Of a stretch of 64,000 nucleotides of DNA, positions 45,959-49,986 are shown one piece after another (positions within the stretch are counted from its first letter, which is position 1; each line of letters opens with the position of its first letter). This DNA is from Clostridia bacterium. Its GTDB lineage: Bacteria > Bacillota > Clostridia > Oscillospirales > RGIG5299. A model generated the notes under the pieces. That model was not told the origin of the DNA. It saw nothing but the letters and a program-made list of their open reading frames with translations, and did no database searches. The position numbers were made by a program, and so were the translations under genes. Location of the stretch: NCBI GenBank assembly GCA_017504945.1, contig JAFVQJ010000018.1, forward strand, positions 1 to 64,000, written 5' to 3'.

Positions 45959-46630
45959 TTACCAAATAAACGGAATTAAACGGTATTTTACCCTTTCCTT
46001 ATATTCAATGTATCCCGAAAGCTCGCGCTCCAAAAATGCCTCCTCGTGCTTTATCCTCGCCGCAATAATGAAAGGATATGCAAGGAAGATAATAAAAGCA
46101 AAGAGCGAGCCCAAAACGAGCGGCATAGAGAGGAAAAGAAGCAGGGTAGCGCTGTACATCGGATGGCGCACTATTCCGTAAAGACCGGTGTCGATGACCC
46201 TTTGCCCCTCCTTCACCTCAATGGTTCTGCTCAAATAGACGTTTTCGCGAAGCACCTCGGCATAAAGGAGATAAGCCGCCAAAAAGACTGCCGCCGCGCC
46301 GTAAATAACGCCTCTCGGAAGTGGGAACCAACCGAAACGAAAATCAAGTCCCGCCAAAACAAACCCGGATATAAACATAAGACCGCTTAGCTTCACCACC
46401 ACACTCTGCTCACGCTGCTTTTCCTTCGCGTTAAGACGCGAGGCAAGAAGGGAAGGACTTTTTATCATCATAACGATTCCCGCGAAAAACATCGGCACGA
46501 AAAGGATAGCCATAAAAAGCCAACCGTTAAAGAAGGCAAGCGACCCCGCAGGTAAAAACACCAACACCCCAACGAGAACAACGCCGAGCAAGAATTTGAG
46601 TATTGCCTGAATAAAAAGCTTAAAGGTCAT
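45959..46630 (-). CDS. ICMT/PEMT-like membrane methyltransferase
   Basis: The 223-residue protein has five or six hydrophobic helices and a C-terminal SAM-binding motif VIDTGLYGIVRHPMYSATLL near 146-165, typical of the isoprenylcysteine carboxyl methyltransferase / phospholipid N-methyltransferase group. Bacterial members have varied or unknown substrates. AAGGAG lies 9 nt before the ATG. It begins 16 bases after the next gene upstream on this strand, so the two may be cotranscribed. Confidence 0.8.
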   Translation of the reverse strand: MTFKLFIQAILKFLLGVVLVGVLVFLPAGSLAFFNGWLFMAILFVPMFFAGIVMMIKSPSLLASRLNAKEKQREQSVVVKLSGLMFISGFVLAGLDFRFGWFPLPRGVIYGAAAVFLAAYLLYAEVLRENVYLSRTIEVKEGQRVIDTGLYGIVRHPMYSATLLLFLSMPLVLGSLFAFIIFLAYPFIIAARIKHEEAFLERELSGYIEYKERVKYRLIPFIW

Positions 46631-46646: not shown

Positions 46647-47477
46647 TTAAAGAATATAATCTCTGATCAAAACCCAAGTTAACACTAAGATCAAAATAAT
46701 ACGTACTATTTCGGCATAAGGGGATTTACTGAAGAACGGGCGATTTCCGCTTGATTTATAGTAATTTTTTTTATGCTTAAAAAACATCATCAGTTCAAAA
46801 AGATTGAGAATTACAGATAACGCCGCAGAAATCATACTGATTATTAAAACGGTGTTAAGTAAAGATTTAACGTATATGAGCAGAGTAACGGTTACTAACG
46901 ATAATACAACTGAAATAATAAACAAGCCGTTAAGATAGTATAATCCGCCTATTCCTTTTTCTTTGTGTATTTTGGAATAAAAGAGATAATTTAAAAATCC
47001 CTCTGTTCGTTTCTCTATCTGGTTTGTTGTCAAACCGGTATATGACGAAATGTAATCCTTCATTGCATCTCTTACGGCAACGTAGGGAAGGCAAACAATA
47101 AATAGAATATACATATATAATAAAATTTGCGCATTCAAAAGACTATCTTCAATTTTAATACTCGGTGAATTACTGCAAGCGAGAAAAAGATTAAACGCGC
47201 AGATTAAAGCACCGATTCCAATACAATAACCTGAAAAATTTTTTAAAATGTCTGTGTCGTAGTCGGAATATGCCCAAAATGACAAACCCAACCCAAATAT
47301 AAGACTGCCAAACGCTGCGTATACAATAAGCAGATCCCGCCCATCAATAACGGAAAGTAATCCAAAAACTGCAACTAAAAGAAGAGGAAGAAAACAAGAG
47401 GCAAAGACGTTAACAACGTGAAGCTTCGGATGCTTTTTCTTGAATTTAACGTATTTGTTTGATTTGTCGTTACTCAT
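46647..47477 (-). CDS. Multi-spanning membrane protein of unknown function
   Basis: The 276-residue protein begins with a charged, Lys-rich segment. It has about seven hydrophobic stretches (near 25-50, 55-75, 80-105, 125-140, 185-210, 215-240 and 255-275) and a soluble loop around SSYTGLTTNQIEKRTEGFL. I do not recognise a family. ATG 47477 follows AAAGGAG, while the upstream in-frame ATG 47498 has no ribosome site. It lies at the far end of the accessory gene group, 42 bases after the previous stop, and is not preceded by the rlmD-tail repeat. Codon use appears AT-rich compared with its neighbours, which suggests acquisition. Confidence 0.65.
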   Translation of the reverse strand: MSNDKSNKYVKFKKKHPKLHVVNVFASCFLPLLLVAVFGLLSVIDGRDLLIVYAAFGSLIFGLGLSFWAYSDYDTDILKNFSGYCIGIGALICAFNLFLACSNSPSIKIEDSLLNAQILLYMYILFIVCLPYVAVRDAMKDYISSYTGLTTNQIEKRTEGFLNYLFYSKIHKEKGIGGLYYLNGLFIISVVLSLVTVTLLIYVKSLLNTVLIISMISAALSVILNLFELMMFFKHKKNYYKSSGNRPFFSKSPYAEIVRIILILVLTWVLIRDYIL

Positions 47478-47519: not shown

Positions 47520-47861
47520 TCATATAAAAGTTTTGATTATTTCAATTTTTCCGATAATATGTGCATTGAAGTTTTCAAGTTCCTCTGCGGGAATCCAAAA
47601 CTCTTGGTGATATGAGGCGCCGACGGTCTGTACATCAAAAGTAGATATGTATTCATCATCAATCTCAAATTTTGTAACATATCCCACATAACCGGAGCCG
47701 ATGTCTTTAGTGTTCCATTTACTTGCAATTTCTTCAGCATAGCGCTGATTTAAAACAGGATAAAAAATCGGTTGCCAATTTAATCGTGGCGGAAATTTTG
47801 AAAAACAGCTTTGCTCAATAAGCTCTAATTCTTTTTGACCTACGGGTCTGTATAAAATCAT
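47520..47861 (-). CDS. ADP-ribosylation/crystallin J1-annotated family protein
   Basis: The 113-residue protein resembles small proteins I recall under the name ADP-ribosylation/crystallin J1. It has an N-terminal YRPVGQKELELIEQS, then FPPRL..QPIFYPVLN near 24-40 and a C-terminal FWIPAEELENFN near 91-102. The biochemical role of this short family is not known and the name should be treated with caution. ATG 47861 lies exactly 14 nt beyond the GAGG of the third rlmD-tail repeat copy. The longer frame upstream reads through the repeat and the preceding gene and is not a real N-terminus. Confidence 0.65.
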   Translation of the reverse strand: MILYRPVGQKELELIEQSCFSKFPPRLNWQPIFYPVLNQRYAEEIASKWNTKDIGSGYVGYVTKFEIDDEYISTFDVQTVGASYHQEFWIPAEELENFNAHIIGKIEIIKTFI

Positions 47862-47892
47862 ATATTTTCCTTCTTCCTCAACCCAACCACAC
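47859..47892 (-). repeat. rlmD-tail repeat, copy 3
   Basis: This 34-nt copy matches copy 2 with one mismatch across the start codon and ribosome-site region. The rlmD-homologous part is shorter (GTGTGGTTGGGTTGAGG). Beyond this, the upstream half differs and contains a partial palindrome CCACAACCGCGCCGATTGTG. The following gene's ATG is 14 nt beyond GAGG. Confidence 0.8.
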
Positions 47893-47914
47893 AATCGGCG
47901 CGGTTGTGGCATTT

Positions 47915-48166
47915 TTAATCGTGCCGTTCTTCTTTTGATTGTTTTTTTCTTTGTACAATGGTGCGTATAGCGCGTATAATTAGAAATATTGCCGATAAAA
48001 CGACACATCCGAACAGTATAATCAATTCGTAATCTGTGCTTTGCCAATCCAACTCTATACCGAATATGCGTGCAATAACTATGCCTACTATCAAAGAAAG
48101 TAAAGTCAATGCAAGATCAACTAATTCATCTAATAATTTATGTTTGATATTTCTCGGCTTTTTCAT
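47915..48166 (-). CDS. Small two-helix membrane protein of unknown function
   Basis: The 83-residue protein has a basic start KKPRNIKHK, two hydrophobic helices near 18-36 and 47-66 and a highly charged C-terminus QRKKQSKEERHD. No family is recognised. ATG 48166 is chosen because GAAGAAGG in the second rlmD-tail repeat gives a ribosome site, and it sits at the fixed 14-nt distance from GAGG. The gene ends 22 bases before the third repeat. A membrane-acting partner for a neighbouring cassette product is possible but cannot be shown. Confidence 0.6.
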   Translation of the reverse strand: MKKPRNIKHKLLDELVDLALTLLSLIVGIVIARIFGIELDWQSTDYELIILFGCVVLSAIFLIIRAIRTIVQRKKQSKEERHD

Positions 48167-48204
48167 ATATTTTCCTTCTTCCTCAATCCAACCACACTCT
48201 CCAC
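48164..48204 (-). repeat. rlmD-tail repeat, copy 2
   Basis: Bases 48180-48204 are identical over 25 nt to 48648-48672 inside rlmD, covering the codons for its C-terminal residues. The 3' extension AGAAGGAAAATATATG is shared instead with copy 3. The copy is not part of any rlmD reading frame here and provides the ribosome site of the next small gene. Confidence 0.88.
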
Positions 48205-48268
48205 GTGGGTCATAAGCCCAAAAGGTATATTTTTGTGTCAAAAATGGGGGTTGTAAATGCAAAAAGTC

Positions 48269-48634
48269 TCACTTTTTGCCCTTTTTCTCAAAATATTCCC
48301 CACAGCGATAATCCTTTTCGCCGAAGTAACAGTTACTTAAATGGTTCTTGTTGTATAGGTAACGGTGCGAGAATTTGAAGATTTTGTTATCCTCACGGAT
48401 TCCACCGCCCATTCTGTTTATATAAAAACAATATCCGCTCTTATCTTGCGTGGTGTAAATGTAAAATGATGCGTTATCATAACTGCCGAATCGCTCCAAT
48501 GCTGCCTCGAGTGAGTAAGTTCCTGCATATAAAACGATTTCACCTGTCTTCTCTTTCTCACAAAGAAAGGTTACTATTGAGTAAAAATCATTTGATTGTG
48601 CGAATCCGCAAATTGTTGAAAGAAAGTTGTTCAT
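48269..48634 (-). CDS. 121-residue protein of unknown function
   Basis: The protein is rich in Tyr, Phe and Cys, with five Cys, and has alternating short strands such as GEIVLYAGTY and ASFYIYTTQ followed by a Gly-rich turn RMGGGIRED. It ends in a basic KKGKK tail. No membrane helix or signal sequence is clear and no family is recognised. ATG 48634 lies 14 nt beyond GAGG at the end of rlmD, so the AGGAGGA inside the rlmD coding end is its ribosome site and the two genes are 5 bases apart. An upstream in-frame start inside rlmD is possible but lacks support. Confidence 0.6.
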   Translation of the reverse strand: MNNFLSTICGFAQSNDFYSIVTFLCEKEKTGEIVLYAGTYSLEAALERFGSYDNASFYIYTTQDKSGYCFYINRMGGGIREDNKIFKFSHRYLYNKNHLSNCYFGEKDYRCGEYFEKKGKK

Positions 48635-48639
48635 ATTTA

Positions 48640-49986
48640 CTATTTCCTCCTCAATCCAACCACACTCTCCACATGATACGTCCTCGGGAACATATCCACG
48701 GGACAAACAGCGGTGATCTCATAGCCCTTTTCAAGCAAAATTTTCAAATCACGCGCCTGGGTGGTGGGGTCGCAAGAAATGTAAACAATCTTCTTCGGCA
48801 TAAACTTTGAAACGGTGGTTATAGCAAACTCCGAAAGCCCCTTTCTCGCAGGGTCAAGAGTAATTATCGACGGCGAAAATCCCTCTGAAAGAAGCCTGTC
48901 GCTTACCTCGCCCGCCTCGCCGCAAATAAATTCGCAGTTATCAAGCCCGTTTAACGCCGCGTTTTCCTTTGCGTCCTTTACCGCATCGGGAACGATCTCA
49001 ATGCCAACCGCCTTTTTGACGTGACGCGCAAAAAACTGCGTTATCGTACCCGTTCCCGAGCAAAGATCGAGCAAAACGTCCTCTTTGGTGGGGTCTGCAA
49101 GCTCAAGCGCCTTGCTGTAAAGCCTTTCAACTTGATACGGATTTATCTGAAAAAACGAAAGAGTGGAAACGTTGAATTTGAGATCTCCGATAAATTCCGT
49201 AAGCTTTTCCTTGCCGTAAAGACAGACCGAGCGGTCGCCGAGTATCTCGTTCCCAGGCTTTGAGTTTACGTTTAGCACAATGCCCGAAAGGGAAGGGATC
49301 GCCTCGGTCAGCGCCTTTGTCAGCTTGTCTGTATGAGGAACGCTTTCCTTCGTTGCAACGATTATAATAACCGTTTCGCCGCTTTTCACGCCCGTCTTTC
49401 CGCCGATATGACGAATAAGACCGCGGCAGCTCTTTTCATCGTAAACCGAAATATTATAATCGGTTATCCACTTTCTGAAAACGGGAATAACAGCGTCAAA
49501 CACCTCATTATGTAACGGACATCTGTCGATATCGATAACGCTGTGCGACCTGCTTCTGTAAAACCCTATTTTAAGCTCTTCGTTTTCCTTTGAAACGGGG
49601 AACTGCACCTTATTTCTGTATGCCGTCACCTTGGGAGAGGGCAAAACGTCGCAAACGGGAAGGTCGACTCCCGCAATTTTCAAAAGCGCATCCTTAACGA
49701 AGCTCTTTTTGTATTTAAGCTCGGTGTCGTAACCGAAATCCGCAAAGCAGCAGCCGCATTTACCGCCGTAGCGGCAAAAATGGTCGGCTCTGTCGGGTGA
49801 CGGAGCTATAATATTTTCGATTTTTGCAAACGCAAAGCTCTTTTGAACCTTTAAGATCCTTAACTCGCAAAGGTCTCCCGCAACGCCGCGCGGTACGAAA
49901 ACGACCATTTTGTCAACTCGTGCAATGGCGTTGCCGCCGTAGGAGACGGCTTCAAGCCTTGCCGTTACCAAATCGTTTTTGTTCAT
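48640..49986 (-). CDS. rlmD: 23S rRNA (uracil(1939)-C(5))-methyltransferase RlmD
   Basis: The 448-residue protein has an N-terminal TRAM domain, an iron-sulfur cluster region with CRYGGKCGCC near 70-79 and a later Cys, a SAM motif I LLDLCSGTGTIT near 305, the TRM motif FQINPYQ near 279, LDPARKGL near 375 and the catalytic Cys in YISCDPTTQARD near 405. These match RlmD/RumA. The start ATG shares one base with the thiI stop (TGATG). Its 3' end is the source of the repeat that precedes three downstream small genes. The rumA 3' end is also a known ICE integration site in streptococci. Confidence 0.93.
   Translation of the reverse strand: MNKNDLVTARLEAVSYGGNAIARVDKMVVFVPRGVAGDLCELRILKVQKSFAFAKIENIIAPSPDRADHFCRYGGKCGCCFADFGYDTELKYKKSFVKDALLKIAGVDLPVCDVLPSPKVTAYRNKVQFPVSKENEELKIGFYRSRSHSVIDIDRCPLHNEVFDAVIPVFRKWITDYNISVYDEKSCRGLIRHIGGKTGVKSGETVIIIVATKESVPHTDKLTKALTEAIPSLSGIVLNVNSKPGNEILGDRSVCLYGKEKLTEFIGDLKFNVSTLSFFQINPYQVERLYSKALELADPTKEDVLLDLCSGTGTITQFFARHVKKAVGIEIVPDAVKDAKENAALNGLDNCEFICGEAGEVSDRLLSEGFSPSIITLDPARKGLSEFAITTVSKFMPKKIVYISCDPTTQARDLKILLEKGYEITAVCPVDMFPRTYHVESVVGLRRK
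48648..48672 (-). repeat. rlmD-tail repeat, copy 1 (the presumed source inside rlmD)
   Basis: The last coding bases of rlmD (GTGGAGAGTGTGGTTGGATT and onward) are the reference copy of the 25-nt repeat that recurs at 48180-48204 and, shortened, at 47876-47892. In this copy the frame encodes VESVVGL of RlmD. Confidence 0.88.

What the first reader, a model, noticed from the sequence alone, without database searches (positions are those of the whole stretch)
47859..48672. Array of small genes separated by copies of the rlmD (rumA) 3' end
The last coding bases of rlmD recur downstream: 48648-48672 and 48180-48204 are identical over 25 nt, and 47876-47892 is a shorter, diverged copy. Each copy is followed by a different small gene (121, 83 and 113 residues) with no apparent relation to the others. 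The shared part is only about 25 nt, which fits site-specific insertion at an att-like core better than a segmental duplication. The rumA 3' end is a known integration target for ICEs in streptococci. No integrase is in the window, so the array may be mobilised in trans or be fossil. This looks like an integron-like cassette locus at rlmD that I do not know as a described system.
Basis: partly seen in the sequence, partly recalled or inferred. Interest (0 to 1): 0.82.

Follow-up and report, generated by a model that had tools for sequence, protein, structure and literature searches.

The report
Gene-cassette array anchored at rlmD
Behind the rRNA-methylase gene rlmD this gut/rumen Clostridia genome carries a short row of unrelated small genes, each plugged in at a copy of the rlmD tail; the same kind of row, with swapped genes, recurs in dozens of related species, so it looks like an undescribed gene-cassette system that works like an integron but without integron parts.

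Summary
In the window rlmD is followed by genes A (121 aa), B (83 aa) and C (113 aa), each starting at a copy of the rlmD 3' end that supplies its ribosome-binding site. The second copy is preceded by a conserved, roughly 75-nt 'END' element that starts at gene A's stop codon (nhmmer E=9e-26). The same END+tail junction occurs in 38 of 246 genomes of one family and in rarer members of other families and one other order, never on the reversed control. Wherever the contig reaches far enough it lies behind a complete rlmD (18) or behind a large serine recombinase reading into an rlmD tail (3). Closely related genomes G301/G289 give an empty-site/occupied-site pair: a 1,126-bp insertion flanked by a 37-bp repeat of the rlmD tail. 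Cassettes 86-93% identical sit behind RlmDs only 46-53% identical. Gene C is 78-80% identical to cassettes in another family. No integrase lies in type I arrays and no attC-like fold is conserved. The enzyme is unproven; an SCC/Ccr-like serine recombinase carried by elements using the same site is the best candidate. I found no published description (open-access papers only).

The parts
48640..49986 (-). rlmD (rumA), 23S rRNA m5U1939 methyltransferase; its 3' end is the anchor (attB-like) site of the array
   Evidence: TIGR00479 386.6 bits; ORF
48643..48675 (-). tail copy 1: rlmD's own 3' end HVESVVGLRRK, whose AGGAGG is the SD of gene A
48269..48634 (-). cassette gene A, 121 aa, no known family; its stop codon TGA is the start of the END element
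48205..48275 (-). type I END element: GTGAGACTTTTTGCATTTACAACCCCC - ATTTTTGACACAAAAA - TATACCTTTTGGGCTTATGACC, immediately before tail copy 2
   Evidence: nhmmer E=8.9e-26 for 48177-48280; pattern hit 48200-48227 with 0 mismatches
48164..48207 (-). tail copy 2: CACGTGGAGAGTGTGGTTGGATTGAGGAAGAAGGAAAATATATGA, with SD and start codon of gene B
47915..48166 (-). cassette gene B, 83 aa, looks like a small membrane protein; a weak relative is the first cassette in G616
47859..47896 (-). tail copy 3, diverged at its 5' side and without an END element; SD and start codon of gene C
47520..47861 (-). cassette gene C, 113 aa; 78-80% identical homologues are cassettes in G196, G301, G289 and G547, and a C-terminal fragment precedes a type I END in G557
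46647..47474 (-). gene D, 275 aa, no homologue found; possible array member, no tail copy in front
   Evidence: inference
45959..46630 (-). gene E, ICMT-type methyltransferase; a 55% identical homologue follows an END+tail in G470, so possibly array-derived
   Evidence: inference

Best explanation
The locus is a short array of mobile gene cassettes anchored in the 3' end of rlmD. SHOWN by sequence comparison: each unit is [rlmD-like tail with SD] - [usually one small ORF] - [END element starting at or near the ORF's stop codon], and END abuts the next tail. Units of about 0.3-3 kb are gained or lost precisely within the tail, and the same unit is found behind unrelated rlmD alleles. INFERRED: a cassette circle carries an END+tail site; a site-specific recombinase supplied in trans recombines it with the tail at the end of rlmD (or of a resident cassette); the incoming tail restores the rlmD C-terminus while the old tail, now joined to the cassette's END, is displaced downstream. 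The newest gene is then read from the rlmD promoter and translated from the SD inside the rlmD tail. Likeliest enzyme (inferred, about 50%): a large serine recombinase of the SCC/Ccr-like kind, carried by integrative elements that occupy the same site. In this genome no such enzyme was found, so its array may now be static.
For: Three tail copies, each with the next gene's RBS/ATG. Type I END before copy 2, E=8.9e-26. END+tail in 7 of 394 order genomes, 38 of 246 family genomes and one genome of another order, 0 on the control pattern. In 25 fetched END loci, 18 follow full-length rlmD, 3 follow a serine recombinase ending in an rlmD tail, and 4 are cut by the contig end. G301 vs G289: 1,126-bp insertion with a 37-bp direct repeat of the tail; gene C homology stops exactly at the next core. 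Cassette vs RlmD identity 92.6/53.3, 85.6/48.4, 93.5/45.6%; 89% vs at most 38% across orders. END abuts the ORF stop codon in 34 of 43 cases. Serine recombinase reading into host-specific tails, and a complete rlmD-element-LSR-tail arrangement in G435.
Against: No recombinase gene lies inside the type I cassettes seen, and PF07508 recombinases were not found in array carriers G000, G235, G344, G140 and G301. The END sequence differs from the end of the serine-recombinase elements. By genome presence alone LSR and END are not clearly associated (3 genomes have both, of 9 LSR+ and 38 END+ in 246). Copy 3 in the window has no END. No circular intermediates could be tested. Many of the genomes compared are fragmented assemblies.
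Confidence: 0.85

Rival explanations
1. The array is debris of successive ICE/IME insertions at rlmD (CIME accretion): each 'cassette' is what remains of a larger element after loss of its integrase and transfer genes.
For: Elements with a serine recombinase do insert at this site and lie directly 5' of arrays in G591, G584 and G326. Tandem accretion of decayed elements is described for IMEs, and serine-recombinase IMEs in rumA are known (PMC5704250).
Against: Units are mostly single-gene, 0.3-3 kb, with the same END placed at the stop codon of unrelated ORFs. They are shared between genera as intact small units. Decay would leave varied fragments.
Confidence: 0.25
2. A tyrosine recombinase (Xer-type or the 278-aa orphan found in this genome) moves the cassettes, as in integrons or Xer-using elements.
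For: The 278-aa recombinase is the only tyrosine recombinase found in G000 and has homologues in G196, G235 and G344.
Against: It was not found in array carriers G368, G385 and G140 (90-98% complete). It scores far below the integron-integrase cut-off (70 vs 265 bits). No conserved single-strand fold in END+tail.
Confidence: 0.15
3. No dedicated enzyme: cassettes shuffle by homologous recombination between the roughly 100-bp END+tail repeats and between rlmD alleles taken up from other strains.
For: END+tail repeats within one array can be similar, and such repeats can recombine.
Against: Does not explain how END came to sit at the stop codons of unrelated genes, nor the precise insertion in the G301/G289 tail with only 37 bp shared, nor transfer across orders.
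Confidence: 0.15
4. Plain tandem duplication of the rlmD end followed by divergence.
For: The copies are direct repeats.
Against: Genes between the copies are unrelated, relatives carry different genes, and cassettes are shared against the rlmD phylogeny.
Confidence: 0.02

Closest known systems
Integrons (IntI / attI / attC gene cassettes)
   Same: Arrays of compact, mostly single-gene cassettes of largely unknown function, one recombination-site-like element per gene placed at its stop codon, a fixed anchor site, insertion next to the anchor
   Different: No IntI, no conserved attC-like fold, anchor is the coding 3' end of rlmD, sites unrelated in sequence
Staphylococcal cassette chromosome (SCC) elements at rlmH (orfX)
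   Same: Site at the 3' end of an rRNA-methyltransferase gene, direct repeats of that end at the junctions, composite tandem islands, pseudo-elements without recombinase (PMC7029136); the candidate recombinase is nearest to Ccr in NCBIfam
   Different: Different gene (rlmD), mostly single-gene cassettes of 0.3-3 kb instead of large islands, a shared END element, no ccr in the cassettes
CIME / IME accretion at rumA, and CTn5 in C. difficile rumA
   Same: rumA/rlmD as target, element replaces the gene's end (PMC4320837), tandem accretion of elements without an integrase (PMC5704250)
   Different: Those are large elements or their remnants; here intact gene cassettes spread as units

Membership tests
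Integron | IntI-type tyrosine integrase gene next to attI | tested here: not met
   No integrase in the window array; the only tyrosine recombinase found in G000 scores 70.5 vs cut-off 265 bits for TIGR02249 and lies on another contig
Integron | attC sites with conserved single-strand fold | tested here: not met
   RNAalifold gives no consensus structure on either strand for 32 END+tail sequences; mean single-sequence z about -0.9 and -1.6
Integron | One recombination site at the 3' end of each cassette gene | tested here: met
   The ORF stop codon starts 1-8 nt before the END anchor in 34 of 43 measurable cases
Integron | Integrase-catalysed cassette excision as circles | not testable with these tools
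   No reads or experiments
SCC element | Insertion at rlmH (orfX) 3' end | tested here: not met
   Anchor gene is rlmD, TIGR00479
SCC element | ccr recombinase gene(s) | tested here: not met
   None in the cassettes; the nearby LSR is below the CcrB cut-off (205 vs 900 bits); no PF07508 protein in G000
SCC element | Direct repeats of the target gene's 3' end at both ends | tested here: met
CIME | Flanked by attL/attR, lacks integration and transfer genes | tested here: met
   Window and other arrays
CIME | Derived from an ICE or IME by loss of modules | tested here: inconclusive
   LSR elements adjoin three arrays, but no ICE/IME remnants were recognised in the cassettes examined

The most novel reading that the evidence does not exclude
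A second, integron-independent gene-cassette system of Clostridia: the 3' end of an rRNA methylase gene acts as the acquisition site, cassette genes carry their own recombination element fused at the stop codon, and a trans-acting recombinase (probably serine type) shuffles them between species and orders.
Probability: 0.5. Interest if true: 0.93.

Novelty: new variant of a known kind. Interest (0 to 1): 0.83.

Why it matters
Integrons are the standard example of a bacterial platform that collects single genes at a fixed site. These data point to an independent platform in gut and rumen Clostridia, built on a core rRNA-modification gene, with frequent recent exchange between genera. It offers a second case for the open question of how gene cassettes (one gene joined to one recombination site) arise, a new reservoir of small accessory genes, and possibly a new tool for stacking genes.

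Tried and rejected
Tail-nucleotide search behind rlmD in about 117 mostly distant genomes: nearly all negative, partly because tails from different donors diverge; a peptide motif search worked better (in the 60-genome order sample 3 hits downstream, 1 of them true, 0 on the reverse strand in 334 kb). Viral contigs with type I and type II END: no hits. Plasmid and phage collections with gene C: only distant homologues (<60%), no vector. Tyrosine recombinase as universal partner: rejected as general because it was not found in three array carriers. attC-like fold: none; an earlier alignment for folding was mis-registered and discarded. Known defence genes among selected cassettes: no convincing PADLOC match. 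Only one other genome of this family was available and its contig ends 76 nt behind rlmD, so no same-genus comparison was possible.

Full report
1. What is in the window. rlmD (48640-49986, minus strand; TIGR00479 at 386.6 bits) is followed by three small genes: A (121 aa), B (83 aa), C (113 aa). Each starts at a copy of the rlmD 3' end. Copies 1 and 2 share 25 identical nt; copies 2 and 3 share 33 of 34 nt including RBS and start codon. The 22-nt core, with up to 3 mismatches, occurs nowhere else in the 1.38-Mb assembly. Genes A, B and C have no Pfam or NCBIfam assignment above cut-off and are not related to each other. The rlmD tail doubles as a ribosome-binding site (AGGAGG in the codons of GLRRK), so gene A starts 5 nt behind the rlmD stop.

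2. Relatives carry other genes between tail copies. Gene C was found in 7 other genomes of the order at 64-80% identity. In G196, G301 and G289 (another family, 78-80% identical) an rlmD 3' end stands directly in front of it: in G301 it is the full rlmD gene; in G289 gene C is preceded by a free-standing tail behind two further genes. Additional tails stand behind rlmD in G020, G276 and G127, and free-standing tails with END elements were also seen in G355 and G398. In an order-wide sample of 60 genomes the tail motif is rare (one true case, 0 on the reverse strand in 334 kb), so the tails are not noise.

3. Direct test of insertion. G301 and G289 have 95% identical RlmD. Aligning their rlmD 3' regions shows that G289 has 1,126 bp more, inserted inside the rlmD tail, with 37 bp (TGTKGAATGYGTSGTTTGTYTGAGYAGAYAATAGGCC) present once in G301 and twice in G289. 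To the right, the gene C unit is 98% identical and the similarity stops at the next core, CACGTGGAGTG. This is an empty-site/occupied-site pair (insertion in one or loss in the other) and excludes simple tandem duplication.

4. The END element. Upstream of most secondary tails lies conserved DNA of a few types. Type I is the one in the window: AATAAAATATACCTTTTGGCTTTACAACCCCCGTTTTTGGCACAAAAATATACCTTTTGGTCTTATGACC, directly followed by the tail CACGTCGAGAGTGTCG. It contains two direct repeats 41 nt apart. It was found in 7 of 394 genomes of the order, 38 of 246 of family f21 and one genome of another order, with no match of the reversed control. The window element scores E=8.9e-26 against a profile built from END sequences that included this genome's own copy, and it matches the type I pattern exactly. 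Type II (G289, G276, G355, G398, and inside a type I array in G584) and type III (G020) precede tails in the same way. In 34 of 43 measurable cases the ORF's stop codon begins 1-8 nt before the END anchor, mostly as TAA-AATATACC or GTGA-GAC. Caveat: END itself contains these stop codons and the longest ORF was chosen, so the number shows adjacency and is not a statistical test.

5. Arrays. Examples read in full: G235 (rlmD and about six units), G368, G344, G590, G616, G565. Of 25 END loci fetched with flanks, 18 have a complete rlmD upstream, 3 a serine recombinase that ends in a tail, and 4 are cut by the contig end. The distance between neighbouring boundaries is 0.3-3.1 kb, median 0.78 kb. 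In the cassettes tested most proteins had no known domain; exceptions are DUF4279, DUF2716 and an 875-aa ResIII/DEAD helicase.

6. Recent transfer. Cassettes shared by different genera are far more alike than their RlmDs: 92.6 vs 53.3%, 85.6% over 875 aa vs 48.4%, 93.5 vs 45.6%. In G928, of another order, the 62-aa cassette is 85-89% identical to those in G547/G565 while RlmD matches at 38% or less. The DNA alignment of the 162-aa cassette in G344 and G235 shows homology running through END.

7. Which enzyme? Tyrosine recombinases: G000 has one (278 aa, on another contig), with homologues in G196, G235 and G344, but none was found in G368, G385 or G140; it is not an integron integrase. Serine recombinases: in G591 a 590-aa large serine recombinase ends in-frame in an rlmD-type tail (...DNDTQVESLVCLTRK*) and stands directly before a type I unit. 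Its relatives in other genomes end in different, host-like tails: ETVVLLCRE, ETIVCLCKQ, ETVCCLSKYV, ETVVLLSPK. In G435 the order is rlmD, about 13 kb including a gene that resembles a MobV-type relaxase (my reading of the sequence, not tested), serine recombinase, tail. So this enzyme's element uses the rlmD tail. Its nearest NCBIfam models are the SCC recombinases CcrB and CcrC, well below their cut-offs. Of 9 genomes with this recombinase 3 have type I END, and in all 3 END lies within 2.6 kb downstream on the same strand; the genome-level overlap alone is not convincing. G000, G235 and G344 have no PF07508 protein, so the enzyme would have to be lost or supplied transiently. The link between this enzyme and type I cassettes is inference.

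8. Comparison with known systems. The arrangement works like an integron, but neither IntI nor a conserved attC fold is present. It shares with SCC the use of an rRNA methylase 3' end, target-end repeats at the junctions, composite islands and recombinase-less members (PMC7029136). rumA as a target of integrative elements is known (PMC5704250; CTn5 fusing rumA to an element-borne C-terminus, PMC4320837). I found no description of single-gene cassette arrays at rlmD in the open-access library; subscription journals and preprints were not searchable.

9. Limits. The window genome is 86% complete; only one other member of its family was available and its contig ends 76 nt behind rlmD. Copy 3 has no END, so the unit B-C junction is either old or of another type. 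Genes D and E may belong to the array (an E homologue follows an END+tail in G470) but carry no tail of their own. No circle or excision could be tested.

Noticed in passing
L198 2601-2860, L220 2217-2540, L219 4882-5130 (oriented with rlmD): Behind several rlmD tails lie arrays of short hairpins separated by a constant word (TGAATTG, GTGAAGTT or ATATCACG), often followed by a small four-helix-bundle-like gene; looks like a separate mobile unit living in the same site.
   Followed up: no
L007, L009, L012, L014, L016, L026, L039, L041, L044, L052: Many public contigs end within about 200 nt behind rlmD, as expected if repeats at this site break assemblies.
   Followed up: no
L346 379-1959; L097, L103, L113, L115, L138: Many RlmDs carry an extra C-terminal part ending ...EALKHFGMI or similar; it may correspond to the element-borne extension reported for CTn5 in C. 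difficile rumA.
   Followed up: partly
L288 8468-17183: The G590 array is followed by what look like restriction-modification and other defence-type genes.
   Followed up: no
G000:C14:61296-61769: Orphan 278-aa XerA-like tyrosine recombinase, the only tyrosine recombinase found in the window genome; homologues in G196, G235, G344.
   Followed up: partly
LR756502.1 373934-374221: A 59% identical homologue of gene C is encoded in a 642-kb uncultured phage genome.
   Followed up: no
L220 3650-3741 and other cassette leaders: Many cassettes with a long leader share a second conserved element before the RBS: GGGACAAATGTGAGTTTTGAGC...TTTACAGCAGTTTAGTATAACATATCG; function unknown (promoter or second site).
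   Followed up: partly
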